Part shown: one piece after another, positions 6,656 to 58,219 of the stretch
Layout of the letters: each line of letters opens with the position of its first letter
Numbering within the stretch: position 1 is the stretch's first letter
Assembly: GCA_015501585.1 (NCBI GenBank)
Contig: JADNRY010000221.1
Location: 37,381 to 101,380 of the forward strand
DNA length: 64,000 nucleotides
Direction: 5' to 3'
Source of the DNA: Rhodocollybia butyracea
Lineage: Eukaryota; Basidiomycota; Agaricomycetes; Agaricales; Omphalotaceae
Notes under the pieces: generated by a model
What the model was told of the DNA's origin: nothing
Databases searched by the model: none
What the model saw: only the letters and a program-made list of their open reading frames with translations
Program-made: the position numbers and the translations under genes

Positions 6656-8117
6656 CATCAGGAAAAGTACATAATGCCCAGGCAAACCTAGAATATCCTG
6701 AGGCAACCCAGGAATTATCCAAATTCCTAGGCTGCCTCAGTGTCTCTCAAAGGCTCTGGTTGACCCAGTCACCAGGGAAACCCAGGTTTGAGGCCATATC
6801 CTGGGTTTCCTCAGTCATCTTTGGGTTGTCCTCAGGTTGCCCTGGGTTTCCCTGGCTGTCCCTGAGTCTCCCTGAGGTTGGGTTGTCCTCAGGCTGACCT
6901 GGGCTGCCCTGGCTATCTCTGAGTGTCCCTGAGGTTACAATTATAAAATCACTAAGAAGTTGACAGTCTGAAGTATGACTCATTTGTGAAGAGTGACTCC
7001 TTTTGACTGGAGTCATTTTGAGTGAAGTCAAAAATGTAAAGTTGAAAATGACTCCACCTGACTGGAGTCATTTTTGACATATAAGTACAGGCTCATTTTC
7101 GGCTCATTTTCGCCACCTCCTCCCTTTACCCCAGACCCAAAAATAAGTTTCATTCATATCTCCACCAGTTTTTGCTCAATTTTGACGATATAGGGCGCGT
7201 TTAGAATCGTTTATGACTCGTCTCTTTACTATATAAGTTTTAGGACATTATTTTGTATTTTTGTTACTACCTCCTCCTTCTCACCCAAGCCCTAAAGTGA
7301 GTTTTACTCATATCTCCATCATTTCTGACTCGATTTTTCCGTTTTAGGTCGCGTTTAGAATCGTCAATGGTCGTATCCATGCTTCGTAAGTTTCAGGGCA
7401 TCATTTTGTATTTTTGTTACTACCTCCTCCTCCTCACCCAAGCCCTAAAGTGAGTTTTACTCATAAAGTTTCCATCATTTCTGACTCGATTTTTCCGTTT
7501 TAGGGCGCATTTAGAATTGTCTAGGACCGTCTCCATGCTTCGTAAGTTTCTAGTCATTATTCCCCATGTTAATTACCTCCTCCTGCTCACAGGCCCAAAA
7601 GTGAGTTTTATTCATATCTCCATCAGTTCTTACTCAATTTTGACAATCCAGGGCATGTTTAGAATCGTTCAGAATGGTCTATCAGTCGTCTCTATGCTCC
7701 ATATGTTTTGGATCACCATCCCCCTCCTTGCCTTGCAGTTGATTACTGTACATTAAAGTTAGTAGTATGTTGCTAAATCCATATACAAATGATTTTCTGC
7801 TTCTCATTGATAACATGTATTGAACAGTCCAATAATACTGATTTCTGAACTGGTGCTTTTTGCTTCAGAAGTTCTGGGCAGACCCCAGAGAGCCTCAGGG
7901 AGCCTCAGGGAACCCCAGGGAGCCCAAGGAAAGCTCAGGGGCATTCAGGGACATTCAGGGATCTCCAATTTAATTTACGGTTCCCTAGGATTTAGGGGGT
8001 AGACCCTGGCACCCTGGAAGTACCTGTGCTCTTGGGGTGCACTGGGGCCCCTGGTTACACTAAGGCCATCTTGGGCCAATTTATGGTTGCCTGGGCCATA
8101 GGGACTTTTTCCTGATG
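6656..8117. mobile_element. CATCAGG-family element E1 with internal tandem array
   Basis: The left end is CATCAGGAAAAGTAC and the right end CTTTTTCCTGATG, flanked on both sides by GG, consistent with a 2-bp target duplication. Subterminal regions are inverted word repeats: CCCTGAGG/CCCTGGG words at 6700-6930 and CCTCAGGGA/CCCAGGGA words at 7870-7970. The centre is a four-unit tandem array (7140-7700). It has no transposase. Confidence 0.75.
7140..7700 (+). repeat. Four-unit tandem array of roughly 150-bp monomers
   Basis: Each unit contains TCATATCTCCATCA, then ACTCAATTTT or ACTCGATTTTTCC, then GGGCGCGTTTAGAATCGT, then CTCCATGCTTCGTAAGTTT, then TACTACCTCCTCC. Units are diverged, so the array is not young. 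The skeleton matches that of the 154-bp monomers in the large element at 19118-23973. Confidence 0.75.
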
Positions 8118-8352
8118 GGTGCAAGAGTAAGCGTAGAATGTAAAAGAACTTGACCTTCAAATCCGCTTTCACCAGCAGAGTTATTTTCTTGCCTGTCATT
8201 GCTAACAGATCCATATATGTCGAAACAGAAAGTCCTCAGATTTTCATACCTACTATTTAAACAGGCAGCCACGTGTGCTCTCGCATTGCCTGACTTCTGT
8301 ACATATGATATCAAAGTATTTAGGAAAGAATTGTCTGGGAGAAATTGACATC

Positions 8353-8430
8353 GGAAGAGAATTAGTACGGGATTGCCATGATGTCATTATCGGATCGGCT
8401 AACTACAACACTCCCCCTCAATCCGGGACT
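8353..8430 (-). mobile_element. Truncated Copia 3' LTR with polypurine tract
   Basis: Bases 8353-8410 match the end of the 244-bp LTR at 12445-12688 (shared AGAGAATTAGTAC and GGATTGCCATGATGTCAT) and end at ACTACAACA. Immediately outside lies CTCCCCCTC, which on the minus strand is a GA-rich tract next to the LTR start. The remainder of the LTR is missing, replaced by unrelated sequence toward the element ending at 8117. It is probably the 3' end of the same minus-strand element whose gag lies at 11.5-12.4 kb. Confidence 0.6.
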
Positions 8431-8543
8431 GTAACAACACAAGTAAGCTCCCCCTGGACTGAGATAGGGTGTGACATGAAATGGGGAACTGTAAGTAAAT
8501 TATACAGTGCGGATCCCCCGGGAGTAAGTATACAACTGTAACT

Positions 8544-8652
8544 ATGGAAAGCAAGAAGGGCCTGCCACCTTGGATCCAGATTTTTGATGTAGCTGAACTG
8601 ATGTTGCCAAATTGGGACATGGACCTCGGGCACTCATTACAATTATGTAAAT
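8544..8652 (+). other. Short conserved peptide copy (inverted partner at 11108-11203)
   Basis: The plus strand encodes MESKKGLPPWIQIFDVAELM and onward, and the minus strand at 11203-11108 encodes MESKKGLPPQIKIFDVAKLM and onward. The two copies stay alignable in the same frame for about 32 codons with only a few substitutions. I do not recognise the peptide. It could be part of a retroelement polyprotein or of the inverted ends of a lost DNA transposon. Bases 8650-10580 otherwise show no gene I can support. Confidence 0.4.
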
Positions 8653-10584: not shown

Positions 10585-10962
10585 TATGGGCTAGGGCTTG
10601 TCACCATATTTGTAGCCTACGGAGTGGGGCTGTAAGTTACAGGAAATCTTCTGTACTGTAAGACCTTCAAACGAGCTGTATTTTACCTACGCTGTATATG
10701 ACACATCATCACACGCAGGTATAACAACTTTTTCTTGCAATTCTGAAACAGGAAAAGCACAGAATAAGAGCCTTAAGCCCTTGTCAAGATACATGCAAAA
10801 TAATACCATTCACCACATATTTGGGGGCAAAGGAGTTCATTGTCACGAGTGAACCTAAGGTACAGTCTGTATATGGAATATGGCCATATTTTGCCTGTAC
10901 TGTACCATAGGAGACAAGAAAATCTCCGTACTGTGTATGTTACATATGGTGAAGAGACCTAT
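10585..10962. repeat. Dispersed repeat, copy 2, with possible terminal inverted repeats
   Basis: The left edge GGGCTTGTCACCATATTTG and the right edge ATATGGTGAAGAGACC are imperfect inverted repeats about 375 bp apart. The 10600-10690 part matches 1930-2020. It is probably a MITE with two copies in the window. Confidence 0.45.
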
Positions 10963-11107
10963 ACTACCAATGGGCGCACACTCTCACGTGAGGCATACAT
11001 AGAGCACTTAGCCTTGTACTCTTAGCTAAGGGCATTTAACTTCTTGTCCAAGAACAGAGCAATGAGAACAGCGGTGATAAATAAATTGGATTAGATTTAC
11101 ATGATTA

Positions 11108-11203
11108 TAACGGGTGCCTGAGGTCCATGTCCCGATTTGGCAACATCAGTTTGGCTACATCAAAAATCTTGATCTGAGGTGGCAGGCCCTTCTTGCTTTC
11201 CAT
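11108..11203 (-). other. Short conserved peptide copy (inverted partner at 8544-8652)
   Basis: This is the minus-strand partner of the plus-strand copy near 8.5 kb. It is followed on the minus strand by two stops after LRHPL. Upstream (11215-11430) short words such as CAGGAGTACACA and CGACTGG repeat four times, so the peptide sits next to a small tandem array rather than a normal gene body. Confidence 0.4.
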
Positions 11204-11497
11204 ATGTAACCTATAAATCCAACATAAGAGTGATTGCCCCAGGAGTACACAACTTCGACTGGGCAATAGGACCGTAAGTGAGCTCAGATTGCCCCAGGAG
11301 CGCACAGCTTCAACTGGGCAATGACCAACACAGGGGATGTCCAATTCCAACCTGTAAGTTTGATATAATAGCGGTGCAGGAGTACACAGCCTCGACTGCA
11401 AGAATAGAATGGGGCTGTGCACAGGAGTACATAACTTTGACTGGAGGCATGGGGGAACAGATCTCAACTATCAAACAAATAAAACTAATAACAACAT

Positions 11498-12354: not shown

Positions 12355-12444
12355 GGTGGAACCAGGTGATGTGTCAATTATACAAATGAGTGACAGAGAA
12401 GACCAACAGCAGGTGATTAGAGTCAAAGGCCAGGGCCCATAACC

Positions 12445-13070: not shown

Positions 13071-13093
13071 TAGTACTGCTAAGTACTTAGTAT

Positions 13094-13830: not shown

Positions 13831-14328
13831 CATTAGTCAAAATGATTGCCTTAATTCTTGGCACTATGATTGTTTGCTCAAAGGCAATCCAGATGATTGT
13901 CCCCAATAGGAGACAATCTCACTGATTGTCCCCAATAGGAGACTATCTCACTGATTGTCCCCAATAGGAGACAATCTCACTGATTGTCTTGGGTTCGTCA
14001 CTCTAAATGATTGTTTGCTCAAGACAATCATTTTGATTGTCCTTAATAGTAGGCAATCCAAATGATTGTCTTAAATTGGGCACTCCAAATGATTGTCCTA
14101 AGTTGTGGGCATTCTAAATGATTGTTTGCTCAAGACAATCAAAATGAGTGTTTGGCAAAAAAACATCTAAATGATTGTTTTTTCAAAAAATGATTGTCTC
14201 AGACAATCAAATTAATTGTTTTTCCTTCCCATAGTGTGGGGGAGCCTGGGTATCCCAGGCTACCTCAGGTTGCCCAGAATTGGGGGGTGTCTCTGGGGAA
14301 CCTGGGCTTTAGGAACTTTTTCCTGATG
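13831..14328. mobile_element. CATCAGG-family element E7, left end decayed
   Basis: The right end CTTTTTCCTGATG at 14328 is clear. The proposed left end CATTAGTCAAAA is a guess at a decayed copy. The interior is a word array of GATTGTC and GACAATC in alternating orientation, including three exact 29-bp tandem units near 13890-13985. Each unit can fold as a 7-bp hairpin. Confidence 0.5.
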
Positions 14329-14517: not shown

Positions 14518-16513
14518 TTACTCCAACTTCATAGTTGTCAATACATCAAGGTGATACTCCCCTATGGCTTTCTTGGGAAGTGCAATCACCTTCTTTTTTA
14601 GCTGTTCAGCACTTTCCAACTCTTCATCTTCATAATATGTACTGCCAAGGCTGGCCATAGGGGTCAATGTATCATCCTGATGCTCTCCGATAACCTTCTT
14701 GTGGAGCACAAGCATCTCATCCTCCAACTTCTCAGCACTTTCCCACTTTCCAAGTGAATGGTATGCAGCAGCAAGGCCAGCCATGAAGCTCAATGTATGA
14801 GGGTGGTGTTCCCCAATAACTTTCTTCTGGAGCACCTGCACAACCACCTCCTCTAGCAACTTCTCAGCACTGTTGAACTTTCCAAGTTCATGATATGTCC
14901 AGCCTAGGTTGGCCATGGAAGCTAATGTATCAGGGTGGTTCTCTCCAGTGACCTTCTTCCGTAGCACAAGTACCTCCTCTTCCAACTTCTCAGCACTTTC
15001 TGACTTTCCAAGTGAGTGGTATGCAGTGGAAAGGCTGGCCATGGATATCAATCTATCAGGGTGGTGTTCTCCAATAATTTTCTTCTGGAGCACAGCCACC
15101 TCCTCTAGCAACTTCTCAGCACTGTTAAGCTTTCCAAGTTCATGATATGTCCAGCCTAGGTTGGCCATGGAAGCTAATGTATCAGGGTGGTGCTCACCAA
15201 TGACCTTCTTCCGGAGCACAAGCACCTCCTCTTCCAACTTTTCAGCACTTTCCAACTTTCCAAGTGAGTGGTACGTAGCAGCAAGGCTGTCCATTGAAGT
15301 CAATGTATCAGGGTGGTGCTTTCCTATGATCTTCTTCCGAAGAACAACCACCTCCTCTTTCAACTTTTCAGCACTATCTAACTTTCCAAGTTCATGATAT
15401 GTCCAGCCTAGGTTGGCCATAGAAGCTAAAGTATCAGGGTGGTGCTCCCCAATGACCTTCTTTAGGAGCACAACCACCTCCTCTAGCATTTTCTCGGCAC
15501 TTTCTAGCTTTTCAAGTGCATAATATGTAGAGCCAAGGTCAGCCATTGAAGTCAGTTTATCTGGGTGATGCTCCCCAATTGCCTTTTTGCGCAACTGAAG
15601 TAACTCCTCTCTAAGCTTCTCTGCACTTGCAAACTTTCCATCTTTATGATATTCAGAGGCAAGGTTGGCCATGGATGTCAATCTATCAAGGTGGAATACT
15701 TCAAGATGTTCTTCTGGCAGTTGCAAAGCTTCATTGGTATTTACCCCTAACTCCTGTGTCCTGCCAAGAGTGTCTGTATCATCTTCTCTTGAATCCTGCC
15801 TTGACATTTCCATATGAGGTTCAAAGGTCAGCAATGACTGTGAATGCACCCCTTGAAATTTTGCAGTGAAGCATTCCACAAGCTCATCTTCGCTGGGGAG
15901 TTCTGAGTCTGACTATACCCAAATAAATGTTCCCCGTATTTGACCAATCATAAAGCCCTGAAATTCTGAATTGCTCACCTCTTCCAACAGGACTTCCCAC
16001 TGTTTGTCATGGGTCATAATAAATTCAATGTTGTTCTATGCAAAGGTCAGTGATCATACCTTATATATTAATTGAGTCAATGTACCACACTGTTGTAGAA
16101 ATATTGGTGAATAGTATTCATTGGATGAGGAAACTGTTAATTCTCTAGTTTCAGTGTCAACTCATGCCAAAGCAGATGAAACATCATACCTTTTGTTGGG
16201 GTGGTAGTAATCTCCACTCCAAATCCTTGGATGTCATTTCTTCAGTTGGTATCACAATGGGATCTAAGGTGTCAATTCCCTTCCCACTAGGGACTTCAGC
16301 TGTGATGCCAATACTTTGTTGATGTATTGTTCTTTTGCTAATCCAATACCCACGGAAGAACACAGTCTCCTTTTTCTGGTCCTTTGGGTTGATCGCAAAG
16401 TTGATTGGATTTGCCAGGCTGCTTTGTAAATTGTACAATGTATTGTCTGAAGAGTCCAGCGATTGCTTGGAGGTGAAGGTGATGTTGACTTGGCTTGTAT
16501 CTGTTACATTCAT
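14518..16513 (-). CDS. TPR (kinesin-light-chain-like) repeat protein
   Basis: The last exon, 15912-14518, encodes about nine 42-residue repeats of the form GEHHPDTLASMANLGWTYHE...SAEKLLEEVVVLRKK. These are tetratricopeptide repeats of the kinesin-light-chain/NPHP3 type, which fold into helical pairs that bind proteins. Two repeat subtypes (LGWTYHELGK and AAYHSLGK) alternate, giving an 84-residue (252-bp) double unit. An exon at 16035-15979 joins in frame across a 66-nt intron (GTGAGC...TATAG), giving ...QWEVLLEE-SDSELPSEDE. A frame at 16513-16184 probably supplies the N-terminus, but its junction phase could not be resolved. In fungi such repeats often form the C-terminus of NLR-like proteins; no NACHT or NB-ARC motif is visible here, so the role is unknown. 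Confidence 0.7.
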
Positions 16514-16536
16514 GCCTTTCCATCATTATTCCGAGA

Positions 16537-18162: not shown

Positions 18163-18536
18163 ACATCAGGAAAAGCCGTTTTTGCCTAGGTGGCCCCAGA
18201 GTGGCCTAAAGCAAACTAGGTGACCTATGAATCCTATGGCATCCTAGGAATTTGGGCTCGTCCCTTGCCAGTCAAGGCTCTTGAGGATTCCCTAGGCAAG
18301 CCTAGGTCTGCCCAGGTTTGCCCAGGTACTCCTGGGGAACACTTGGGGAACACCTGGGCAGACCTGGGCAAACCTAGGCTTGCCCTGGGTTTGCCTAGGA
18401 TACCCTAGGGAATCCTCAAGAGCCTTGACTGGCAAGGGATGAGCCCAAATTCCTAGGATGCCATAGGATTCATAGGTCACCTAGTTTGCTTTAGGCCACT
18501 CTGGGGTCACCTAGGCAAAAATGGCTTTTCCTGATG
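18163..18536. mobile_element. CATCAGG-family foldback element E2
   Basis: A 374-bp element whose two halves are reverse complements over almost the entire length (CATCAGGAAAAGCCGTTTTT...CTTTTCCTGATG), flanked by TA on both sides. The centre is made of GCCCAGGTTTGCCCAGG words. If transcribed it would form one long hairpin. No coding sequence. Confidence 0.85.
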
Positions 18537-19729
18537 TAGCCTCTTGTGTGGTAGAATTAGGAGGCAACTGAGGAACTGATGAATGTATATGAATCTGTTC
18601 AGCAGCATAAAAATTGCTCTGAGCAACATGAAAAGCATTTGCATCATGGAACATCAAGCTGATTTATAAGATTAGATCATGTTGCTAGGGGAAATTAACA
18701 TGAATGACCCATGTAGTCTTGAGGCTGGTTTTAATTCACTTGCATTCTTGTCCCTCCAATTACTATTGGTATTAAGTAACCATTAGCACTGACTCCGCAC
18801 ATGAGCAGCCCAGTGCAAGACACCTACATGGTAGCAGTAGGACCTTGCCAAACAGGTATTCTGCTAGGCCGCACTCTAGACTGTTGGTATGAGTCTCACC
18901 GTATTGATTAGATAGTTACATCAGATCACATGTATCTTGACAGGCGCTTAATTAATTGTTGTTTTGTCTCTTGCCACATCATTGTTGCTTGCTTGTCTTC
19001 TTTTGTGGAGCCGTCCGGGGTTGTAAAGTTTAACAGGTTATGGGCAAGTGTTAGCCACTGCCTTGCTGCTTAACTGCCACCACCTAGGTCTATTCCTATT
19101 GTCTGCTGTCACAATCACATCAGGAAAAGGCTAATAGACTCAAGCCAACTTGAGCCAACTTGAGGCCAACTTCAGTATATTTGCCAACTTGAGGCCAACC
19201 TGAGTATATTTGTCAACTTGAGGTTGACATGGGCCAACTTGAGTATATTTGTCAACTTGAGGTTGACCTGGGCCAACTTGAGTAGATTTGCCAACTTGAG
19301 GCTAACCTGGGTCAACTTGAGTAGATTTGTTAGCTTGAGATCAACCAGGGTCAACCTCAGTAGATTTGTCAACTTGAGGTTAACTTGAGATTAACTGAAG
19401 TCAACTTGAGCTTAACCTGGTATAAGGCATGTACTGAGTTCAACTGTAGAGTAGTAATGCCCAAAGTTGCTATTTAAGTTGAACTTGAATGAGGTTTAGG
19501 TTTAAAAAAGATCAATTGTGTAGACAGAGGTCATTAGGTATCTAGACAAATTCTATACAACTGGGGGTAGTGTGGGATGGGACCAGGGTAGAAAAGTGCA
19601 AAGACAGGAAGTGAATAAAGGAACATAGAGAGGCTCCCTAGAGACTGTGAATGTGCCCTACATTTAAAATGAGAGAAAACCAAGGGAGAGATGGCAAAAA
19701 CATCAAAAATCACCTAAGTGAGACTGACC

Positions 19730-22180
19730 AGGGGGAGATGACCCAGATGGAAAGTGACCAGGAAGTGAGTGGAGGAGCATAGAGAGGGTCCTAAGCGAAT
19801 GTGAATGGGCCCTACCTCGGAAAAATTGAATGGAAATTGAATGAGTTATGGCAAAAACATTGAAAATCACCTATATGATGAGAGAGTGATGGAAAAAGCT
19901 GGGAATTGCTCTAGCGTGAGTACAGCGACAGTGGGGGGTACCTAGGGGATCTAAACGAGCCCTGGACGAAAGAAATCGAATGGAAACTGATGGAAATATG
20001 GCAAATACAGCGAAAATCACCTAAGTGAGACTGACCAGGGGGAGATGACCAAGATGGAAGGTGACCAAGAAGTGAGTAGAGGAGCATGGAGAGGGTCCTA
20101 AGCGAATGTGAACGGGCCCTACCTCGGAAAAATTGAGTAAAAATTGAAGAAGTTATGGCAAAAACATTGAAAATCACCTATATGATGAGAGAGTGATGGA
20201 ACAAGTTGGGAATTGCTCTAGCGTGAGTAAGGCGATAGTGAGGGGGTACCTAGGGGATCTAAACGAGCCCTGGACGAAAGAAATCGAATGGAAACTGATG
20301 GAAATATGGCAAATACAGCGAAAATCACCTAAGTGAGACTGACCAGGGGGAGATGACCCAGATGGAAAGTGACCAGGAAGTGAGTAGAGGAGCATAGAGA
20401 GGGTCCTAAGCGAATGTGAATGGGCCCTACCTCGGAAAAATTGAATGAAAATTGAAGGAGTTATGGCAAAAACATTGAAAATCACCTATATGATGAGAGA
20501 GTGATGGAAAAAGTTGGGAATTCTCTAGCGTGAGTAAGGCGATAGTGAGGGGGTACCTAGGGGACCTAAACGAGCCCTGGACGAAAGAAATCGAATGGAA
20601 ACTGATGGAAATATGGCAAATACAGCGAAAATCACCTAAGTGAGACTGACCAGGGGGAGATGACCCAGATGGAAAGTGACCAGGAAGTGAGTAGAGGAGC
20701 ATGGAGAGGGTCCTAAGCGAATGTGAATGGGCCCTACCTCGGAAAAATTGAATGAAAATTGAAGGAGTTATGGCAAAAACATTGAAAATCACCTATATGA
20801 TGAGAGAGTGATGGAAAAAGTTGGGAATTGCTCTAGCGTGAGTAAGGCGATAGTGAGGGGGTACCTAGGGGATCTAAACGAGCCCTGGACGAAAGAAATT
20901 GAATAAGAACTGATGGAATTATGGCAAAAACAGCGAAAATCACCTAAGTGAGACTGACCAGGGGGAGATGAATAAGATGGAAAGTGACCAGGAAGTGAGT
21001 GAAGGAGCATGGAGAGGGTCCTAAGCGAATGTGAACGGGCCCTACCTCGGAAAAATTGAGTGAGAATTGAAGGAGTTATGGCAAAAACATTGAAAATCAC
21101 CTATATGACGAGAGAGAGATGGAAAAAGTTGGGAATTGCTCTAGCGTGAGTACAGCGACAGTGAGGGGGTACCTAGGGGATCTAAACGAGCCCTGGACGA
21201 AAGAAATTGAATGAGAACTGAGGGAAATATGGCAAATACAGCGAAAATCACCTAAGTGAGACTGACCAGGGGGAGATGACCAAGATGAAAGGTGATCAAG
21301 AAGTGAGTAGAGGAGCATGGAGAGGGTCCTAAGCGAATGTGAACGGGCCCTACCTCGGAAAAATTGAGTGAGAATTGAAGGAGTTATGGCAAAAACATTG
21401 AAAATCACCTATATGACGAGAGAGAGATGGGAAAAAGTTGGGAATTGCTCTAGCGTGAGTACAGCGACAGTGGGGGGTACCTAGGGGATCTAAACGAGCC
21501 CTGGACGAAAGAAATTGAATGAGAACTGAGGGAAATATGGCAAAAACAGCGAAAATCACCTAAGTGAGACTGACCAGGGGGAGATGACCAAGATGAAAGG
21601 TGATCAAGAAGTGAGTAGAGGAGCATGGAGAGGGTCCTAAGCGAATGTGAACGGGCCCTACCTCGGAAAAATTGAGTGAGAATTGAAGGAGTTATGGCAA
21701 AAACATTGAAAATCACCTATATGACGAGAGAGAGATGGAAAAAGTTGGGAATTGCTCTAGCGTGAGTACAGCGACAGTGGGGGGTACCTAGGGGATCTAA
21801 ACGAGCCCTGGACGAAAGAAATTGAATGAGAACTGAGGGAAATATGGCAAAAACAGCGAAAATCACCTAAGTGAGACTGACCAGGGGGAGATGACCAAGA
21901 TGAAAGGTGATCAAGAAGTGAGTAGAGGAGCATGGAGAGGGTCCTAAGCGAATGTGAACGGGCCCTACCTCGGAAAAATTGAGTGAAAATTGAAGAAGTT
22001 ATGGCAAAAACATTGAAAATCACCTATATGATGAGAGAGAGATGGAAAAAGTTGGGAATTGCTCTAGCGTGAGTAAGGCGATAGTGAGGGGGTACCTAGG
22101 GGATCTAAACGAGCCCTGGACGAAAGAAATCGAATGGAAACTGATGGAAATATGGCAAAAACAGCGAAAATCACTTAAGT
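19730..22180 (-). repeat. Left arm array: 308-bp dimeric higher-order repeat
   Basis: About eight copies of a 307-308-bp unit. Each unit is two diverged monomers of about 154 bp. One contains TTCAATGTTTTTGCCATAAC and a GAGGTAGGGCCC segment; the other contains TTCGCTGTTTTTGCCATA and a GTCCAGGGCTCGTTTAGATC segment (minus strand). Neighbouring dimers are much more alike than the two monomers within one, the pattern of a higher-order satellite. Open frames of 88-121 codons recur once per unit and are a by-product of the period. Confidence 0.85.
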
Positions 22181-22189
22181 GAGAATGAA

Positions 22190-22680
22190 CTGAGGAGTGC
22201 TGAACAACATGGGGAACTGATCATATGAGATCAAAGCAGCATAGAGAATGTCTTTAGGCAATGTGAGTGAGCCCTACTTTGAAGAAATTGCATGAAAACT
22301 GCAGGAGATATAATAAGAAGACAAAAAAAATGCCTAAGTCTGATGGTCATGTGTTAACTTATGACAAATCATTCAACTTGCATGTTCTCGCTCCTCCACC
22401 ATCGTCTCTGGGATTCCCTGCTGTGTTGCCAACAAATCCATCCACCATTAGTCTTTCTTTATTACCCATTTGTTTTGTTTATTTTCTCACTGTAACTGTC
22501 TTTCTCGAGAGGCCGAGCTTGGACATGGTTAAGATAGCACAGTTACAGGCAGCTGCCACCTTTCTCGAGGTTCTTTGGAACTGGTCATGATAGAGCGTTG
22601 CATTTTTACTCCTTCTTACTGTTCCTCTCTGCCTCTTTAATCTTGTCTCAGCAACTCCCCATACTGTCTGTCCCACTTAG
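22190..22680. other. Unique centre of element E3
   Basis: This 490-bp spacer separates the two inverted arrays. It shows no clear repeat. It has a plus frame at 22267-22590 and a minus frame at 22676-22479, neither recognised. It could be captured host sequence or a relic of an autonomous element. Confidence 0.4.
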
Positions 22681-23570
22681 GTGAGCTTTGGTGTTCTTGT
22701 CATATCTCCTTCAGTTTTCACTCAATTTCTTCGATGTAGAGCTCGTTTAGATCCCCTAGGGACCCTCTCCCCACCGCTTCAATATTGTTTGAATAGCTCC
22801 CCATCGTGGTTACTGTCCCCAGGTCAGTCTCACTTAGGTGATTTTCGCTGTTTTTGCCATAATTCCATCAGTTCTTATTCAATTTCTTTCGTCCAGGGCT
22901 CGTTTAGATCCCCTAGGTACCCCCTCACTATCGCCTTACTCACGCTAGAGCAATTCCCAACTTTTTCCATCTCTCTCTCATCATATAGGTGATTTTCAAT
23001 GTTTTTGCCATAACTCCTTCAATTTTCACTCAATTTTTCCGAGGTAGGGCCCGTTCACATTCGCTTAGGACCCTCTCCATGCTCCTCTACTCACTTCTTG
23101 ATCACCTTTCATCTTGGTCATCTCCCCCTGGTCAGTCTCACTTAGGTGATTTTCGCTGTTTTTGCCATATTTCCCTCAGTTCTCATTCAATTTCTTTCGT
23201 CCAGGGCTCGTTTAGATCCCCTAGGTACCCCCTCACTGTCGCTGTACTCACGCTAGAGCAATTCCCAAATTTTTCCATCTCTCTCTCGTCATATAGGTGA
23301 TTTTCAATGTTTTTGCCATAACTCCTTCAATTTTCACTCAATTTTTCCGAGGTAGGGCCCATTCCCATTCACTTAGGACCCTCTCCATGCTCCTCCACTC
23401 ACTTCTTGGTCACTTTCCATCTTGGTCATCTCACCCTGGTCAGTCTCATTTAGGTGGTTTTTCCTGTTTTTGCCATATTCCCCTCAGTTTTCATTCCATT
23501 TCTTTGTTATAGGGCTCGTTTAGATTCCCTAGGTACCCCCTTACTATTGCTGTACTCACGCTAAACTTTG
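22681..23570 (+). repeat. Right arm array: same 308-bp repeat in opposite orientation
   Basis: Nearly three 308-bp dimers, in the orientation opposite to the left arm. Each has TTCAATGTTTTTGCCATAAC and TTCGCTGTTTTTGCCATA monomers. The first monomer next to the centre is the most diverged. Confidence 0.85.
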
Positions 23571-24399
23571 CTATTATCTTATGTTATTATCATTTATTTT
23601 GTACTTTGTTTGTATACAAATTACATCATTTGAACACTTAGTTGTTGTGACTTGAATGTTCTTGAAGTAATATGTTGCCTACTCACAGGTGGCTTGAGAT
23701 TGACTTGGGACTACTCTAGCTGAGTTCAGGCTGACTTGAGACTGACTTGAGTTGCCTTGAAGTTGCTCAAGTTACCCAAGTTGGCTTGAAGCTGGCTTGA
23801 AGCTGGTTTGAAGTTGGTTTGAAGTTGGCTTCAGTGGATTGAAATAGATCAACCTTGCATTGAGTGCTGTATGGCCCCCAATGACCATTGGGGGCCATAC
23901 AGCCCTCAGGCTGGCTGAAGGGTCATCCAGGTTGGCTCAACTCTCCTTGAGTAAAGGGGGTATTTTCCTGATGCTTCTCCCATCCCTATATCTCTTTGAA
24001 AATTTTACATGGTTCACAGTCTGAACAAATGATTATCAATATGGCATTCACTCTCCATATGGCGCAACTTTTGGACCGTCTCACAAAATCGAAATCTGAC
24101 CCTCGCCCCCAATGCTCGTAATTCCTCCAGAACATCCCACCGTCGTTGAATCTGTGTCGACAATACCAACACAATTGTCTTCCTCTAGAAGTTATTTGGT
24201 TTCTTTGTAATGGTTGATGGTCTTTGAGATCACGACGTCCAGATATAGATAGTGTTTTTCATGATACCTTTTGGGCTTTCGTGTCATGATTTGTGGTACC
24301 AAGTGTTGACATGTCTCTCACACAAACATGACAGGTGTTTCAATCAGCGCGAGTGTTTCCCATTGCACCACTATCAAAGATTTGGTCTACTTTGACTGT

Positions 24400-25280: not shown

Positions 25281-25631
25281 CATCAGGAAAAGCCGTTTTT
25301 GCCTAGGTGACCCCAGAGTGGCCTAAAGCAAACTAGGTGACCTATGAATCCTATGGCATCCTAGGAATTTGGGCTTGTCCCTTGCCAGTCAAGGCTCTTG
25401 AGGATTCCCTAGGGTATCCTAAGCAAGCCTAGGTTTGCCCAGGTCTCCCCAGGTGCTCCCCAGGAGCACCTGGGCAAACCTGGGCAAACCTAAGCTTGCC
25501 TAGGGAATCCTCAAGAGCCTTGACTGGCAAGGAACAAGCCCAAATTCCTAGGATGCCATAGGATTCATAGGTCACCTAGTTTGCCTTAGGCCACTCTGGG
25601 GTCACCTAGGCAAAAACGGCTTTTCCTGATG
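25281..25631. mobile_element. CATCAGG-family foldback element E4
   Basis: A 351-bp, almost fully palindromic element of the same sequence family as E2, with CA on both flanks (25279-25280 and 25632-25633) as a 2-bp target duplication. It lies between the two inverted arms at 24400 and 25787. Confidence 0.85.
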
Positions 25632-26515: not shown

Positions 26516-27224
26516 TAGAACCTTCATTCTTAGCCAATCTAGTCATTCCGATGCAGGCTATTTAGCACGCGAAGATCTCGTGGATCAATTGATGTTGCTG
26601 GAAGCTCAGAGCAATTCATCGAATACGACAGCCACGATGCTTCCAAGGCTTCTCCACTTGTTGGTTCGCTGGCTGAGATTCCCTACAGCAAGGCCGGTTA
26701 GTTTTTGATTTTTTAAGCTTTAAAGATGAGAATATTGAATGTCATCTATCTCTAGACAAGCAGGTATATATCATATGCACCAGCAGAATCCGATATGAAC
26801 TCAAGCCATGAAGGGGAAGAGGTTGACATTTCTTCTGGGCTGGGATACCTGTGAGGCAACCTGAGGCACAAATTGACTTTATTGACTCTTCGATATTCAT
26901 GATCCCTGTCTCTTTTTTTTTTTTGTAATCATTAGTACAAGTTTGTGAAATGTACATATGTTTATCGCCTTCACCTCTTTTTCTATCCCGCGCGAAATGC
27001 TCCGCGTTTCTAGGGCTATACCTTGCCGTTTCACAAACAGGGAGACTCTAACACTCTACTGGCGAGTCGCTAGTGCCTTCAAGTGGCAGACATGCAATGA
27101 ACGATACCAAACAGTCAATCTACCCAAGCAGCGCCATCACCGTTCAATATCACGCGCCTTCCATTCCTGCAATGGTACATCCTGAACAAAAGACCTCTCG
27201 TCCGAGGCGATGTGGAGCCCATAA

Positions 27225-29656: not shown

Positions 29657-29671
29657 ATATGGGAACCACAT

Positions 29672-31035: not shown

Positions 31036-32624
31036 CATCAGCATTTCTCCACAATTGTGATCCGGTATAATTGGCATCAATACATGCCAATCACGCCTCT
31101 TTATACAAATTTCGGGAAGTATAATCAGGTATGTATAGATCCCCGAGTGCATAATAGAAATACCCGATTATACATGATTATAGATGTTTATGCTCTCGAT
31201 TCTCATCTGATTATACCTTGCTTTATACTCAGTAATACCAGATTATACAAGATTATACATCCCCATTATACACATTAATACACGGTTATACACCCAGTTT
31301 TTAGCTCAGTTGCTCATTACACGGCTGAAAAACTAGCAAAAATGTTGTTATTACTTCAATATATTACAACTACGTATACATAGTACAATATAGGCTAAAA
31401 AAACGTTACTACTGTTATGACCACACAAGACAAGCGGCGTCGCGTTGCGCAGAAAGCAAAACATCACTGAATACCAATCGGCGCATCAGTAAAAAGTTAT
31501 CACAAACGGGAAAAAGACTGACCTTGTAAGCCCCAGAGAATCGTTGCTATGTACAAAAACATCAAGTTAGTAAATATCGTCGAACTGATATGAAGTGATA
31601 AACCTAAACTCGAAGCCTGGCGAAAATCAAAAAATGGTCTGAGAGCCTGTGGACATGAAAATGGAGGCGGCCTGCAAAGGAAAGATGCCTGCGCAAGTAC
31701 TCAACACTCTGTGAATAGTCAGTACATATTCGAGTCTGGCTGGGAATCGACTTGCCTAGATTTATGGGAGGAGGTGGGGCTGGCGTCAACGCTTTTCCGA
31801 ACTTTGAAATGTATAGCTGTATGGTTGGTAGCAGTATGAAACAACGAGGACCAGAAAAAAAATAGTAAGTACTAATTGGCTAAAGAAAAAGAGACACGCA
31901 CCACAATAACACCGAGATCCAAGTCCTAGTGCACCTCTCCGAAAATCACTTAAAGAAGGCAAATTCTCGATAGGCAATTAAAAAACGCAGCAGCCCAAGC
32001 TGGAGGACTAACCGTAGGCCGCAAGTAGCAACAAGAGCAAGGATAAAATTTTAACATCCGAGGAAAAGAAAGATTAGAGATGGTTTGAGTTTTTAAAATT
32101 GAAAACGGCACTGGCGTCAAATCATGAAACGATCATGTGGTACTATACAGCTGTCGGAGTTTCAATGGACTTAGCTGTTCTGCATTGGACTTCAGGCGCT
32201 GTCAAGGCCGTTGTCCAACTTCATGTAAAGTTCCGCTATCTTGCTGCTGGAGCTCTGAATAACTGAGGGATGTCATGACTAAGATACTATGCCTGAGGCT
32301 GAGGCACAATACCTGTGTGCTCAGTACAATGTCAGTGTACCACCACTGTCACGGTACTACTACATATAAGTACTACGATTTGACTACAATGTACTAACGT
32401 CTCATTGGGTTAACATTATAATTTATTGAGAGTAAGTATAATGAGGCATAATCACGCATAATTGGACATAATTGGCGCGTATCATCACTGTATCATCGCG
32501 TATAATCATTATACCCTGGGTATAATTCACGAAATCTCAGGGTTGCATAATTGAGTATAAATCAGTGTTTTGATTACAACAGATATGCAATTATACCGTT
32601 TACATTTGTGGAGAATTGCTGATG
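31036..32624. mobile_element. CATCAGC-terminated element E8
   Basis: Imperfect inverted ends of about 40 bp (CATCAGCATTTCTCCACAA against CATCAGCAATTCTCCACAA, then GGTATAATTG on both) lie 1.59 kb apart. They are flanked by CA at 31034-31035 and 32625-32626. Subterminal zones are ATTATAC words on the left and GTATAAT/CATAAT words on the right. The middle (31430-32400) has no frame I recognise. The CATCAG start and 2-bp duplication tie it to the CATCAGG family. Its left end lies about 150 bp upstream of the F-box start codon. Confidence 0.7.
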
Positions 32625-42854: not shown

Positions 42855-43155
42855 TGTAGAACGAAGCCTCAGTTGTAGTGTACGAACAACTCTATATTGA
42901 GTATGTATACCTGTAGAACGAAGCTACGTTATTATAGGAGTAAGATTGTTAAAGGAAAATATAAGTAACGCTCACCCTCAGTTGTAGTGTACGAACAACT
43001 GAGGGTGATGATTCTGGGGCTTGAGTATAAGTATTAGGCTGGAAGAATAGATGAGCCTGTAACCGGACGGGAGCAACTAATGGATAAACAGAAAAGTGAA
43101 ACGAAGAATATAAATGGAATGCCAAAGCATTATCGGACGAATACCTTTCCTAACA
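42855..43155 (-). mobile_element. Copia 3' LTR, 301 bp
   Basis: Plus-strand limits are TGTAGAACG and CCTAACA. It differs from the partner LTR at 48020-48319 at about six or seven sites. It contains a hairpin, CACCCTCAGTTGT pairing with ACAACTGAGGGTG around about 42977-43011. The flank CTTAT at 42850-42854 resembles CTTAG beyond the other LTR. The preceding stretch 42300-42850 shows only an 80-codon unrecognised frame. Confidence 0.85.
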
Positions 43156-44478
43156 CACCCCCTGATTTGTACGATCCAATCCCAACATTTTGACAAACTT
43201 TGAGTTTACAGTCCCATTCAGTGCTTTGGTGAAGATGTCAGCGACGTTTTCCCCTGTCCTTATGAGAGTTAATGCAATCTCATTATTCGCTACCTTCTCC
43301 CGGATGAAGTGGTAACGCATCTCGATGTGCTTCACCAACATGTGCTTCTTTGTGTTTTGCGTGAGACTAACTGCAGCGAAGTTATCTCCATGAAGCATGA
43401 GCGGCCCCTCCTGGGTTAGGTCAACTTCAGCCAAGAATGACATTAACCAGCTAGCTTGCTGGCATGCCCTCGCACCCGAAATGTATTCAGCTTCAGCGGT
43501 TGATAATGCCACTGTCGGTTGACGCTTTGAGCTCCACGTCACTGGTGCTCCGGCCATAAAGAAGACGTTCCCAGATGTTGACCGACGAGTATCCATGCAT
43601 CCCGCATGGTCGGCATCAAGGTACCCACATGGTTTCAGGCCTTCACCTTTGCTGAGCTCAGATCTGGGTGGTGGCTTTCGGTAGGTGATGGAGTAATCGA
43701 GCATTGCCAAAATATACCCTGCCAACCATTCTACCGCTTCCCAGTGCTGACGACCTGGGTTAGTTTGATAGTGGGCAAGCTTACCGGCAGCGAAAGCAAT
43801 GTCGGGGCATGTGCAGACCTGTCCCCATTGGCATGAGCCCACTACGGGACGATAAGGTTTGTTGTGCATAAAGATTTGTTCTTCTTCCGGGAGCAGGTTT
43901 GGAGCAGCCCCAAGCTTGTTATCAGGAGGGAGAGGTGTTTTCCTGCGTCTGACATTCTGTAACCCAAAATGTTCAAGCATGCGGATAAAATATGCTTTCT
44001 GGGAGAGTGTGATTGCGCCAGTCACCTTATCTTGAGTGATGCTCATTCCAAGGAGCATTTGCGACCTGACTTCCCCGCTTTCCCATCGCTTCCCAAGATC
44101 TCTGATGGCCTCTGCTCTCGCTTCTTCACCCTCTGCGCCTCCCAAAACATCGTCGCCATATGTACTCATTATGGTGTAGTTCCCATTTTGGCGACGGTAG
44201 CGAACACATGGATCAGCCTTAGATGATATATACCCATCATCTTTGAAACCCGTTGCAAGTGTGTCCTGCCAGTCGTGGCTCCCCTGCATTGTACCATAGA
44301 TTGACTTCTTCAATTTGCAGACCAAGTGTTCAGTCCCGGGTTTGATGAATCCTTTGGGTTGCTTCATGTACATGTCATGCTTTATTGGGCTGTTGAGGAA
44401 AGCAGATTTGAAGTCTACTTGGAATAGGGACAGTCCGAGGACAACAATGATACAAATCACAATTTGAAATGATTCCAT
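43156..44478 (-). CDS. Copia reverse transcriptase/RNase H frame
   Basis: A long frame begins after a frame break and carries LFQVDFKSAFLNSPIKHDMY (RT motif with the first catalytic Asp), KLKKSIYGTMQGSHDW and STYGDDVL. The catalytic motif is YGDD, where Copia elements usually have YVDD. RNase H follows: GYLDADHAGCMDTRRSTSG, TVALSTAEAEYIS, LHGDNFAAVSL and a C-terminal VKHIEMRYHFIREKV...DIFTKAL. All RNase H acidic residues appear present. The frame reaches the edge of the 3' LTR. The domain could be catalytically sound, but it has no intact upstream polyprotein. Confidence 0.85.
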
Positions 44479-44500
44479 TCAAGCAACTGCACCAAAAGTT

Positions 44501-44815
44501 TCATCGTAATCGACCCCATAAACCTGTGTGAAACCTTTTGCTACATATCTCGCCTAACTCGCTGTCCGCACCCCATTTTGACGTCAGAATCCACATTCCA
44601 TCAGTCAGGTTTGCTCCTGGTGGTAGCAGCACCAACTCCCAGACATCTTTTGCCATCAGAGCATCATACTCAGCTTGTATTGGCGGTCCCCAGAGATCCC
44701 AGCGAAGCTTGGCCTCTTTGAAGTTCCTAGGGGTCCATTTTTCATCAGCGAATGCCCATGGTTCGTGAGCGACAAGAGCCAGGGATGTTTCCGTTTGGGG
44801 TATATTCCACCCCAT
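44501..44815 (-). pseudogene. Copia reverse transcriptase N-terminal part
   Basis: The frame contains WTPRNFKEAKLRWDLWGPPI, EYDALMAKDVWELVLLPPGA and TDGMWILTSKWGADSELGEI. These correspond to the conserved A...E..AL..N.TWELV..P.G...I..KW.....DGE start of Copia RT. It is separated from the main RT frame by a frameshift near 44500 and by stops. Confidence 0.75.
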
Positions 44816-44892
44816 CTCTTTGCGGACAAGCTTGTCAACATTGAGAGACCCACCAGTGTGTTCTCATAAACTTCGACATGGCTCTGGAGGAA

Positions 44893-45294
44893 TCAAAGGC
44901 GGGGGAATTGGTGCTTCAGGCATTGCAGTCGGAGGAGTAGAAGAAAGTGGAGTAAGAGGTGAGGAGGAGTCGAGATAGGAGGGGAAGGCCATGTTGAGAT
45001 CATGAAATCGGACTTACCAGCCCCCACAGATTTTGTGATCTCGGCATCAGTACCGGAGTTAACGCTGTCAGACATCTCTTCATCCTCTCCAGTAGACGTC
45101 ATTGGTCTTGTTCTCCTTGCCAATCCTTCCTTGAATCTCACATCTCTGGATTCAATAATTGCTTTTGACTCAGGCAGCCAGATGTGATAATCCCTTTGCC
45201 CTAAATAACCCAACAGTCGGCCTTTCACTGCTCGGTGACCCAGTTTACCAGTTCCGTGCTCTTCTGGTAATGTCACCCAAGCATCACACCCAAG
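44893..45294 (-). pseudogene. Copia integrase C-terminal part and linker
   Basis: The frame begins GCDAWVTLPEEHGTGKLGHR followed by GRLLGYLGQRDYHIWLPESK and VRFKEGLA. This is the GC.A.V.....K...R...G.FLGY......Y.I.....................V.F.E segment that ends Copia integrases. It is cut off from the catalytic core by the element at 45295-45651. Confidence 0.8.
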
Positions 45295-45651
45295 CATCAG
45301 GAAAAGCCATTTTTGCCTAGGTGACCCCAGAGTGGCCTAAAGCAAACTAGGTGACCTATGAATCCTATGGCATCCTACCTTGCCAGTCAAGGCTCTTGAG
45401 GATTCCCTAGGGTATCCTAGGCAAACCCAGGGCAAGCCTAGGTTTGCCCAGGTTTGCCCAGGTGTTCCCCAGGTGTTCCCCAGGAGCACCTGGGCAAACC
45501 TGGGCAAACCTAGGCTTGCCTAGGGAATCCTCAAGAGCCTTGACTGGCAAGGGATGAGCCCAAATTCCTAGGGTGCCATAGGATTCATAGGTCACCTAGT
45601 TTGCTTTAGGCCACTCTGGGGTCACCTAGGCAAAAATGGCTTTTCCTGATG
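45295..45651. mobile_element. CATCAGG-family foldback element E5 in Copia integrase
   Basis: A 357-bp palindromic element nearly identical in plan to E2 and E4. It splits the integrase between ...SHLWPF and GCDAWV. If the left boundary is shifted out by one base, AA flanks both sides, and removing the element with one AA copy leaves a continuous frame, supporting a 2-bp target duplication. Confidence 0.85.
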
Positions 45652-46160
45652 AAATGGCCACAGGTGCGAGACATCCTGTTGTCTCCCTTTCCATGCCTCC
45701 ATCGGTACCACATCTGGGTTTCGTGCTGTTGGGACAAAATTATCAACATAGACAAAAGCACTAACAGCTTCTGCCCAGAATGATGGTGGAAAACCTGAGT
45801 CTTCGAGGAGTGTTCTGGCGCCCCAATCACTGTGCGATTTCCGCGTTCTGCCATTCCATTGGCAGCTGAGGAGTATGGAGTTATCTTTTCGATGACAATA
45901 CCATGCTTAGCGCAGTACTCCTCCATAAGCGTGTTGCTCAGTTTGCCACCTCTGTCTATGCGAATGACTTGGATGCATTTACTTGTTTGGTTTTCTGCCA
46001 TCATGCGGTATTTGTGGAAGCAGTCGACTGTGGTCTCCTTGCGCTTGTTCGAGAGGAAATAGGGAATACGGACAGAAGATTTTCTGTCACTACACAGCAT
46101 CATGTAACTCGCGCCGCCTCTGCTCTGTGTCCTCGACGGGCCCCAGAGATCAATGTGCAC
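45652..46160 (-). pseudogene. Copia integrase catalytic core
   Basis: MHIDLWGPSRTQSR, then IRIDRGGKLSNTLMEEYC, then SSAANGMAERGNRTV give the Asp-Asp-Glu triad of retroviral-type integrases (D in DLWGP, D in RIDRGG, E in MAERGN). After this the frame is shifted: the SHLWPF end of the core lies in another frame, just before the inserted E5. Confidence 0.8.
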
Positions 46161-46434
46161 CCTTTCTAGTCAGTCTCATGTGTGACTTTCTCGTCAAATG
46201 GGCGCCGTGTTGCTTTACCATAGAGGCATGGTTTGCACATTCCAATGGTTTCTTTGGACGTGATCTGAATTCCGTTAACAAGGTTGCGACTCGCCATTTG
46301 CAGGATTCTAGGGATGCCAACATGGCCAAGGCGCCGGTGCCAGGTGTGTATATCTGTTGGTTTTTCATGGGATCAAGCTGAGTTTGCATAGGTCTCTGTG
46401 TTGACCTGATACATTTTCCCTTCCTGTGCTCCAA
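46161..46434 (-). pseudogene. Copia integrase zinc-binding (pre-integrase) part
   Basis: Overlapping frames here encode the H...H...C..C pre-integrase domain, visible in an alternative frame as a HRRLGHVGIPRILQMASRNL segment and a later MCKPCLYGKA. The ORF reading is broken, so only a remnant is claimed. Confidence 0.55.
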
Positions 46435-46690
46435 CCATTACCATCTCTCCCGATGGCCCTTTAACTGAGAGTTTTCCGCCACCCCATTCTCTACTGTATC
46501 CCTGCAGGTCCAGAGTTGGCAAGGAGATTAGGTTGTTCAAGAACTCAGGGGTATGTCACACTCCAGTAAGCTCAACCATCTTCTCGGTGCCATCCACCCT
46601 CGAAGACACTGTGACGTTACCCATTCCTGGTATCTGAAATCTCCCTCCTGCTACTGTGCTGTTCCCTGTTTCACCTGCGATACCTTGGTA

Positions 46691-47008
46691 TCAGGAGATC
46701 TCGGATTTATTCACCCAGCAATGCTCTGATGCTGCCAAACCTAAGTAGATTTTTGGTTGGGGTGTATGGCTGGGTGCATTGCTATTGCATATGGTGCATT
46801 CGGCAGGATTAGCTACAAGGAAACAGGTAATGGGTATGTCCCTATCTACACTAATGTTCTCCCCTGCATTTAGAATGGAAGTGCCATATCTATTAGGTGC
46901 GGCGTCAGGGGATTGCATTGTGACAGATGTGGTATCAGACATACCCGGCTTGGTATTGGCGAGGTTGGCGTATAGCTCGGAGGGACTGGGATCGGCCTCG
47001 ATGTACAC
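46691..47008 (-). pseudogene. Copia protease region with destroyed active site
   Basis: The C-terminal part reads KIYLGLAASEHCWVNKSEIS, where active fungal Copia proteases have a (W/Y)LDSGAS.H motif. The catalytic Asp-Ser-Gly is replaced (G, L, A), so the aspartic protease cannot work. Confidence 0.65.
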
Positions 47009-47107
47009 ATTGGAAGCTGTAGTAGAGGTCGCAGCTGGAGTTGAGGTGATTGATGCAGCATTCGCAGGTGCATTGCTCTTGTTATATCTCCAGCCTTTCA
47101 GCCCTTT

Positions 47108-47941
47108 TCATTCGGCACCACCTCCCTTCTTCCAGCACATCTCAATCGTATGACCAAGCTTTCTGCACACTGGATTTGAACAGACAGGACGTGTTCCTTG
47201 AGCTCGGTTGGCCACTGCAGCTGCGGCGTGAACCGCATTCGCTCTAGCTATCAGGGCCTTGACTTTTGTCTGCTCTATTTCCTCCTCCTCCTGCCGCCTC
47301 TTCTTATTGAGCCAAAAGGCTTCGAGATGAGTGAAGGCGTCAGCGCTAGATGTTCCAGGTGTATGCAACATGGTGAAGTCCCAAGACTTGGGGAAGGAAT
47401 TGAGAAGAATGGTCCGAAATTGGGAGTCAGAGATACTAGACCCAAGGTCTCTGGCGTCCTTGACCAAACGGCGCAGTTTCTTGGCATGCGCCTCATAATC
47501 TGCATCCTCTCCCATCTTCTCGCCACAAAGACAATCCTCAGCGATCATCATGAGTTGGATGGTCTTGGAGCCAAGCTCCTTATTGAGATAGAACCAGATC
47601 TTCGCCGCGGAATCATTGTCTCCTATTCCCAATCCAACAGGATCCTCAGTATTGTTGACAACCACACTAGCAACCCAGCGGTCACAAGTATGTCACTCTT
47701 CATATGAGGGAGTTGGGCTGGTGAGTGGAGTGCTCTGAGTCTGGGGGTAAATTGGAGTGATGTAGGCAGCAGAGAGATTGGTATTCGGTGAGCATAGGAT
47801 CACTCCTCTGAGATATCTACCTAGCCCTCTTGCTCCAACTGCAAGCTCAACTTGGCGTTTGAATGGAATCCAATTCTTCCGCCCCATCAGTCGTTCGTCA
47901 TCTCTGAATGTTGGTGGATTTGGCAGATTGCCGCTCGACAT
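47108..47941 (-). pseudogene. Copia gag with zinc knuckle, frameshifted
   Basis: The N-terminal frame at 47941-47693 starts MSSGNLPNPPTFRDDERLMG and carries NWIPFKRQVELAVGARGLGRYL. The second frame, 47665-47108, has AAKIWFYLNKELGSKTIQLM, LRRLVKDARDLGSSISDSQF and a knuckle CSNPVCRKLGHTIEMC, with a C-X4-C first pair. A stop and shift near 47680 separate the halves. Confidence 0.8.
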
Positions 47942-48019
47942 ATCTCTCTAGATGAACCTCTGGAATGGCAGTAGTATAAGTTATTGTCAGTAGCTCAGTT
48001 TGAGCCAAGTCTCATCATC

Positions 48020-48319
48020 TGTAGAACGAAGCCTCAGTTGTAGTGTACGAACAACTCTATATTGAGTATGTATACCTGTAGAACAAAGCTACGTTATTAT
48101 ATGAGTAAGATTGTTAAAGGAAAATATAAGTAACGCTCACCCTCAGTTGTAGTGTACAAACAACTGAGGGTGATGATTCTGGGGCTTGAGTATAAGTATT
48201 AGGCTGGAAGAATAGATGAGCCTGTAACCGGACGGAAGCAACTAATGGATAAACAGAAAAGTGAAATGAAGAATATAAATGGAATGCCAAAGCAGTATCG
48301 GACGAATACCTTTCCTAAC
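48020..48319 (-). mobile_element. Copia 5' LTR, 300 bp
   Basis: Partner of 42855-43155, with the same hairpin near 48142-48176. On the minus strand the first base differs from the other LTR. It abuts a CATCAGG element starting at 48323. Confidence 0.85.
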
Positions 48320-48322
48320 GCT

Positions 48323-48537
48323 CATCAGGAAAAGCCGTTTTTGCCTAGGTGACCCCAGAGTGGCCTAAAGCAAACTAGGTGACCTATGAATCCTATGGCA
48401 TCCTACTAGGGAATCCTCAAGAGCCTTGACTGGCAAGGGACGAGCCCAAATTCCTAGGATGCCATAGGATTCATAGGTCACCTAGTTTGCTTTAGGCCAC
48501 TCTGGGGTCACCTAGGCAAAAACAGCTTTTCCTGATG
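48323..48537. mobile_element. CATCAGG-family element E6, internally deleted
   Basis: A 215-bp derivative of the E2/E4/E5 type lacking the central part. It lies against the outer edge of the Copia 5' LTR, with flanks CT and TA. Behind it comes TACTTAG, which may contain the displaced 5-bp duplication CTTAG (CTTAT at the other LTR). Confidence 0.75.
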
Positions 48538-58200: not shown

Positions 58201-58219
58201 CTACATCCTTCATTATGTT

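What the first reader, a model, noticed from the sequence alone, without database searches (positions are those of the whole stretch)
6656..48537. A family of CATCAG...CTGATG elements with conserved ends and element-specific inverted word interiors
At least seven elements (6656-8117, 18163-18536, 19118-23973, 25281-25631, 45295-45651, 48323-48537, 31036-32624) and a decayed one ending at 14328 share CATCAG(G/C) termini. Four have matching 2-bp flanks (GG, TA, CA, CA). Interiors are unrelated between subfamilies, yet each is filled with its own short words in inverted orientation: CCTGAGG, CCCAGG, CAACTTGA, ATTATAC, GATTGTC. Conserved ends with free but self-complementary interiors suggest a transposition or replication mode that builds palindromes. 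I cannot place it in a known superfamily; a 2-bp duplication fits CACTA-like groups but the ends do not.
Basis: partly seen in the sequence, partly recalled or inferred. Interest (0 to 1): 0.82.

Follow-up and report, generated by a model that had tools for sequence, protein, structure and literature searches.

The report
Non-autonomous fungal Plavaka DNA transposons
The CATCAG-ended elements in this fungal genome are small passenger copies of a recently described kind of mushroom jumping gene (Plavaka), so they are real and numerous but not a new kind of transposon.

Summary
The failure to place them does not. The window's genome (95.6 Mb) supports this. CATCAGGAAAAG occurs 1,419 times, 15 for the reversed control. 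Of 26 copies of a longer end, 23 lie 3' of a Plavaka domain and point inward (0.40 expected). Eleven Plavaka-coding elements with such ends were read at both ends, and 11 of 11 have an exact 2-bp duplication (about nine insertions). The window's 23973 end shares 18 bases with their 5' ends. Empty sites fix boundaries; 27 of 30 miniature copies have a 2-bp duplication. Inverted words fit CACTA-type subterminal repeats; nothing requires a palindrome-building mode. Oddest: a non-autonomous family with converging 308-bp satellite arrays, 26 paired copies. The 31036 element is placed by ends and duplication only.

The parts
6656..8117 (.). Non-autonomous element, 1462 bp, CATCAGGAAAAG..TTTTTCCTGATG, flanks GG/GG, CCCAGG/CCTGAGG words near both ends, central ~153-bp tandem repeats
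   Evidence: 54 genome matches, 8 of them (window's own included) starting within the first 4 bases and reaching base 1462 in one piece
18164..18536 (.). Palindromic miniature element (MITE), 373 bp, flanks TA/TA
   Evidence: related empty sites at C524 and C664, 77-78% identity
19118..23973 (.). Non-autonomous element, 4856 bp, with two converging 308-bp satellite arrays; its 23973 end is the coding elements' 5'-type end (CATCAGGAAAATACCCCC)
   Evidence: no matching flanks
19691..22188 (-). Satellite array 1, about 8 units of 308 bp
22817..23563 (+). Satellite array 2, about 2.4 units, opposite orientation
25281..25631 (.). Palindromic MITE, 351 bp, flanks CA/CA, near-perfect hairpin
   Evidence: DNA fold -206.5 kcal/mol, z -35.9; empty-site junctions
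31036..32624 (.). CATCAGCA-ended element, 1589 bp, flanks CA/CA, ATTATAC words; separate family, same end type
   Evidence: 41 genome matches; copies L071, L072 flanked TA/TA; related empty sites C709, C472 at 80%; no coding partner identified
45295..45651 (.). Palindromic MITE, 357 bp, inside a copia element; flanks AAG/AAA
48323..48537 (.). Palindromic MITE, 215 bp, abutting the end of a copia LTR; no matching flanks
13831..14328 (.). Decayed element: right end TTTTTCCTGATG at 14328; left end at 13831 only a candidate (3 mismatches)

Best explanation
The CATCAGGAAAAG elements are non-autonomous derivatives of PlavakaB DNA transposons (CMCT clade, CACTA-like) in a fungal genome. Shown: the ends, the 2-bp duplication, coding Plavaka elements with the same ends and duplication in the same genome, and empty sites. 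Inferred: Plavaka transposase made by the coding elements recognises CATCAGGAAAA plus subterminal words, excises the passenger copies by cut and paste, and inserts them with a 2-bp staggered cut. The element-specific words are subterminal binding-site arrays like those of CACTA elements, which diverge between subfamilies because the protein that reads them diverges. The 31036 family is probably a second PlavakaB-type lineage, placed by ends and duplication only.
For: Published PlavakaB features: CATCA..TGATG, 2 or 3 bp duplications (PMC12730594). 138 Plavaka (PF18759) matches in the genome, best E 2e-108, none in 14 control genomes; they merge into 88 loci. CATCAGGAAAAGCAC: 26 sites, 23 within 0.9-5.1 kb on the 3' side of a Plavaka domain and pointing inward, 0.40 expected. 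Eleven coding elements, picked because they carry such ends on both sides, all have an exact 2-bp duplication, which was not part of the choice (C114; ten); about 9 independent insertions. The 23973 end matches the C114 coding element's 5' end at 26 of its first 28 bases; CATCAGGAAAATACCCCC occurs 83 times against 0 for the control, 16 Plavaka loci having one within 12 kb upstream, pointing inward. 27 of 30 MITE loci (window's own included) have an exact 2-bp duplication of 13 different sequences. Nine related empty sites for 25281; 8 read straight through the junction with one copy of the duplication. Copia integrase frame at 45295: 74.7 bits with element plus 3 bp left out against 65.8 with the extra codon kept. 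ACTTGAG/CTCAAGT: 10 times in 837 bp of C114 ends, 0 in 4,008 bp around its transposase domain.
Against: No transposase in the window: no PF18759 match is listed on contig C519, and none in 30 of the 113 window ORFs of 90 aa or more. Three of seven window elements lack an exact 2-bp duplication. 65 of 88 Plavaka loci were not linked to the 15-base end, and only 2 of 30 loci had CATCAGGAAAA within the 1.5 kb first read on each side; PF18759 covers other lineages too. The MITE and 6656 words (CCTAGG, CCCAGG, CCTGGG) were absent from the C114 ends, so which coding lineage drives them is not shown. 31036 shares only CATCAG and the duplication. The PlavakaA/B split by transposase phylogeny was not tested. 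Mobilisation in trans is inference.
Confidence: 0.93

Rival explanations
1. A new superfamily whose transposition or replication builds palindromes.
For: MITEs are near-perfect hairpins; the 19118 family has converging satellite arrays; the ends of the larger elements align weakly but above shuffles; a slight within-element arm excess (184 of 5,000 permutations).
Against: Ends and duplication belong to a published lineage and to transposase-coding elements in the same genome. Arms of one MITE are barely more alike than arms of different MITEs.
Confidence: 0.03
2. Classical CACTA/EnSpm elements.
For: Same wider clade; subterminal repeats and internal satellites are also described in plant CACTA elements (PMC2613891, PMC8978399, passages).
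Against: Termini are CATCA rather than CAC/CACTA, the duplication is 2 bp rather than 3 bp, and the domain found next to the ends is Plavaka PF18759.
Confidence: 0.02
3. The satellite-bearing elements multiply mainly as satellites by unequal exchange, with the transposon ends incidental.
For: Unit number varies; 20 of 26 element lengths lie within 45 bp of a 308-bp grid, best phase (random lengths: mean 12.2, maximum 19 in 1,000). The window copy has no matching flanks.
Against: Copies begin at the CATCAG end: 35 other matches start at query positions 198-201 where the element begins at 201. The listed array begins 540-543 bp from the 5'-type end in 17 of 29 array-bearing contigs. Exchange could still set array length inside a transposing family.
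Confidence: 0.06

Closest known systems
PlavakaB DNA transposons (Kojima 2025, PMC12730594)
   Same: CATCA..TGATG termini, 2-bp target duplication, Plavaka transposase domain in coding copies of the same genome, fungal host
   Different: Window copies code no transposase; several are full palindromes or carry inverted satellite arrays, features not mentioned in the sections and passages read
CACTA/EnSpm elements with subterminal repeats (Spm/En, Tgmt*; PMC2613891)
   Same: Short words repeated near both ends, differing between subfamilies of one species; related clade
   Different: CACTA termini and 3-bp duplication
CACTA-like Jozin elements with internal satellite DNA (PMC8978399)
   Same: Transposon carrying a tandem satellite array inside
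   Different: There the array sits close to the 3' end of a coding element; here two converging arrays in a non-coding family
Foldback-type elements (recalled, no call)
   Same: Long inverted arms made of tandem repeats
   Different: Here the ends are Plavaka-type and the arrays begin about 541 bp inside

Membership tests
PlavakaB | Termini CATCA..TGATG | tested here: met
   7 of 7 window elements. The 11 coding elements were chosen by such ends, so they do not test this row
PlavakaB | 2 or 3 bp target duplication | tested here: met
   4 of 7 in the window, 27 of 30 MITE loci, 11 of 11 coding elements
PlavakaB | Plavaka transposase (PF18759) in elements with the same ends | tested here: met
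   23 of 26 long 3'-type ends next to a Plavaka domain; 11 Plavaka loci have both exact end types. Met for CATCAGGAAAA ends, not for the CATCAGCA ends of 31036
PlavakaB | Transposase falls in the B lineage of the Plavaka tree | not tested
   No tree was built; the reference sequences are in supplements that were not opened
PlavakaB (31036 element only) | Coding partner with the same CATCAGCA end | not tested
   Its genome copies were listed, but a coding partner was not systematically sought
CACTA/EnSpm | CAC(TA) termini and 3-bp duplication | tested here: not met
   Ends CATCAG; 0 of 30 MITE loci with an exact 3-bp duplication
PlavakaA | TGT..ACA termini | tested here: not met
MITE | Short, non-coding, inverted ends, many near-identical copies | tested here: met
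   671 first-look candidates, 40 scored, 92-100% identity over query 1-2 to 350-351

The most novel reading that the evidence does not exclude
A foldback-like PlavakaB family whose core is a pair of converging 308-bp satellite arrays at a fixed 541 bp from the 5'-type end, growing and shrinking in 308-bp steps and spread by transposition, so that a DNA transposon makes and disperses a satellite; the related ~153-bp unit in the 6656 family would mean the satellite is an old functional part of these elements rather than a chance capture.
Probability: 0.4. Interest if true: 0.5.

Novelty: new member of a known kind. Interest (0 to 1): 0.36.

Why it matters
It places a puzzling repeat class in a lineage whose termini were described in December 2025, links non-coding copies to coding elements in one genome, and supplies ends, duplication length and empty sites for annotating Plavaka-type elements. 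The satellite-bearing family gives a case for testing how DNA transposons make and spread satellites.

Tried and rejected
Scans for the ends in viral contigs and in prokaryotic genome contigs gave nothing useful; the single viral match (L001) was not read and is taken as chance by a rough estimate that no call computed. A protein search with the ORF next to 31036 found no relatives, and a solved-structure search with the joined copia fragment found none. A literature search for CATCAGG with 'terminal inverted repeat' found no paper. New superfamily, classical CACTA and pure satellite readings are set out as rivals. C114 and C453, nearly identical at the 3' side, have no homology in the upstream stretches read, so C453 was not used as a full element. 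The 13-bp tandem repeat at 45274-45299 is largely copia coding sequence meeting the element start. Rows dropped before counts: 12 of the 83 CATCAGGAAAATACCCCC sites (5' ends of coding elements) were left out before pairing, as were the 4 flank-only matches and the lower-scoring word matches, L039 and 48323 were left out.

Full report
What was checked. The seven named end pairs are in the window; the second starts at 18164. Four of seven have identical 2-bp flanks (GG, TA, CA, CA), P about 5e-4 against chance. CATCAGGAAAAG with up to 2 mismatches gives 18 window matches against a mean of 8.15 in shuffles, none of 100 shuffles reaching 18.

Setting. Pfam finds fungal protein kinases, copia gag and reverse transcriptase, an aminopeptidase-type enzyme and TPR repeats. 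The window is G000:C519:37381-101380 of an unnamed 95.6-Mb assembly in 1381 contigs. That it is a mushroom-type fungus is inference.

Placement. Kojima 2025 (PMC12730594; outline and abstract, passages, and the sections on Agaricomycotina and ESTA) states that PlavakaB families generate 2 or 3 bp duplications and have termini CATCA..TGATG. In the window's genome PF18759 Plavaka has 138 matches, which merge into 88 loci. CATCAGGAAAAG occurs 705 times forward and 714 reverse, control 9 and 6. The longer end CATCAGGAAAAGCAC has 26 sites; 23 lie 0.9-5.1 kb beyond the 3' side of a Plavaka domain and point inward, against 0.40 expected within 8 kb; the other three are C428 and C454 (no Plavaka match on the contig) and C561 (20 kb away). 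So 23 of 88 Plavaka loci have this end; the other 65 were not linked to it, and PF18759 may cover several lineages. With only 1.5 kb read on each side, 2 of 30 loci showed CATCAGGAAAA. In C114 the element runs 187189-195206, 8018 bp, flanks GA/GA. Ten further coding elements (C175, C635, C574, C613, C620, C907, C926, C443, C1058, C820), chosen because they carry both end types around a Plavaka domain, were read at both ends: 10 of 10 have an exact 2-bp duplication. The ends are shared by choice; the duplication is the test. C114, C620 and C907 share flanks, so these 11 stand for about nine insertions. Two more (C1369, C839) could not be read.

Link to the window. The end at 23973 and the coding elements' 5' ends share CATCAGGAAAATACCCCC; 26 of the first 28 bases agree with C114. 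The 18-mer has 83 genome sites, control 0; 16 Plavaka loci have one within 12 kb upstream, pointing inward, and 11 have both end types. The other CATCAGGAAAAG elements of the window share the first 11-12 bases and, in part, the 2-bp duplication. The 25281 MITE family has 671 first-look candidates, of which 40 were scored. Of the 30 loci read, the window's own included, 27 have an exact 2-bp duplication of 13 different sequences, none 3 bp; L044 and L061 have none, and L039 was not measured because its match stops short.

Empty sites. The joined flanks of 25281 match nine other places across the junction; in 8 of 9 the sequence passes it without the element and with one CA, and in L084 four extra bases stand there. 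Joined flanks of 18164 match C524 and C664 at 77-78%, and those of 31036 match C709 and C472 at 80%, across the junction; those alignments were not inspected base by base. For 6656 no match goes more than 3 bases past the junction and for 19118 none beyond 4. For 45295 the copia integrase frame serves: SH3_retrovirus scores 74.7 bits, aligned without a length change, when the element and 3 bp are left out, and 65.8 with the extra codon. That means a 3-bp duplication with one change, or 2 bp plus one added base; the family rule favours 2 bp.

Interiors. K-mer tests show inverted sharing above all 300 shuffles for 6656, 19118, 18164 and 25281; 19118 also has direct sharing above shuffles, and 31036 shows no orientation preference. 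The two ends of 6656, 19118 and 31036 also align colinearly above all 100 shuffles, with 168 of 288, 137 of 308 and 190 of 278 identical bases, against 143 of 158 and 148 of 168 for the two MITEs; this is a weak colinear resemblance, which repeated words at similar spacing could give and which does not exclude old, decayed palindromes. In C114, ACTTGAG/CTCAAGT occurs 10 times in 837 bp of ends and 0 in 4,008 bp around the transposase domain, while the MITE and 6656 words are absent from its ends. Subterminal repeats that differ between subfamilies and are bound by a transposon protein are described for plant CACTA elements (PMC2613891, passages; PMC8978399, passages). The 25281 MITE is a near-perfect hairpin (z -35.9). 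In 31 MITEs the mean arm distance is 0.0199 within an element, 0.0219 left-left, 0.0219 right-right and 0.0217 left-right between elements. This fits expansion from one ancestor with already matching arms; a weak within-element excess remains (184 of 5,000 permutations).

Satellite family. The 19118 element has two converging arrays of a 308-bp unit. The unit has 229 genome matches from 40 of 117 scored candidates; the 150 listed lie on 29 contigs, 26 of which hold an inward-pointing CATCAGGAAAATACCCCC. The nearest listed unit begins 540-543 bp from it in 17 of these, 819-848 bp in 6 and 2.1-3.0 kb in 3. Ten of the 29 contigs list units in both orientations. The 19118-type end has 35 other matches, starting at query positions 198-201 where the element begins at 201, while 4 matches cover the flank and stop there. 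Pairing the two end types gives 26 copies including the window's, 1,533 to 5,479 bp; 20 of 26 lengths lie within 45 bp of a 308-bp grid at its best phase, against a mean of 12.2 and a maximum of 19 in 1,000 random sets. The 6656 element carries a related unit of about 153 bp; it has 54 genome matches, of which eight, its own included, start within the first 4 bases and reach base 1462 in one piece.

Left open. 19118 and 48323 have no matching flanks. 48323 abuts a copia LTR; the copia's possible 5-bp duplication (one mismatch) would include the first bases of the element, so the copia may have landed on its edge. Which coding lineage serves the MITE and 6656 families, and what serves 31036, is not shown. 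Literature searches made: (listings); none of these asked for satellite arrays in Plavaka elements, so that those are undescribed is not claimed. Other papers seen as passages only: PMC9674265, PMC7473861, PMC8290104, PMC11075540. PMC8290104 says it characterised Plavaka and KDZ inverted-repeat motifs of Marasmius oreades in a supplement, which was not seen.

Noticed in passing
42855-48320: A copia retrotransposon, minus strand, LTRs 98% identical, with the 45295 MITE nested between its integrase core and SH3-like domain.
   Followed up: partly
27210-29671: Two inverted arms of 873 bp, 99.5% identical, possibly another young inverted-repeat element.
   Followed up: no
6260-6643: A separate palindromic repeat directly left of the 6656 element, with several genome relatives.
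   Followed up: no
2498-4787: Imperfect inverted repeat with arms of about 680 bp, 86% identical.
   Followed up: no
14518-15912: A 464-aa open frame of TPR_10-type repeats.
   Followed up: no
48679-54732: Repeated copies of a region with fungal protein kinase (Pkinase_fungal) matches.
   Followed up: no
55210-62317: Three diverged copies of one region, 64-87% alike, with no Pfam match in the three ORFs scanned there.
   Followed up: no
G000:C114, C620, C907: Three contigs carry a Plavaka-coding element at what looks like the same insertion site, suggesting alleles or duplicated assembly.
   Followed up: no
L084 (C579): An otherwise empty 25281 site with four extra bases at the junction, possibly an excision footprint.
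   Followed up: no
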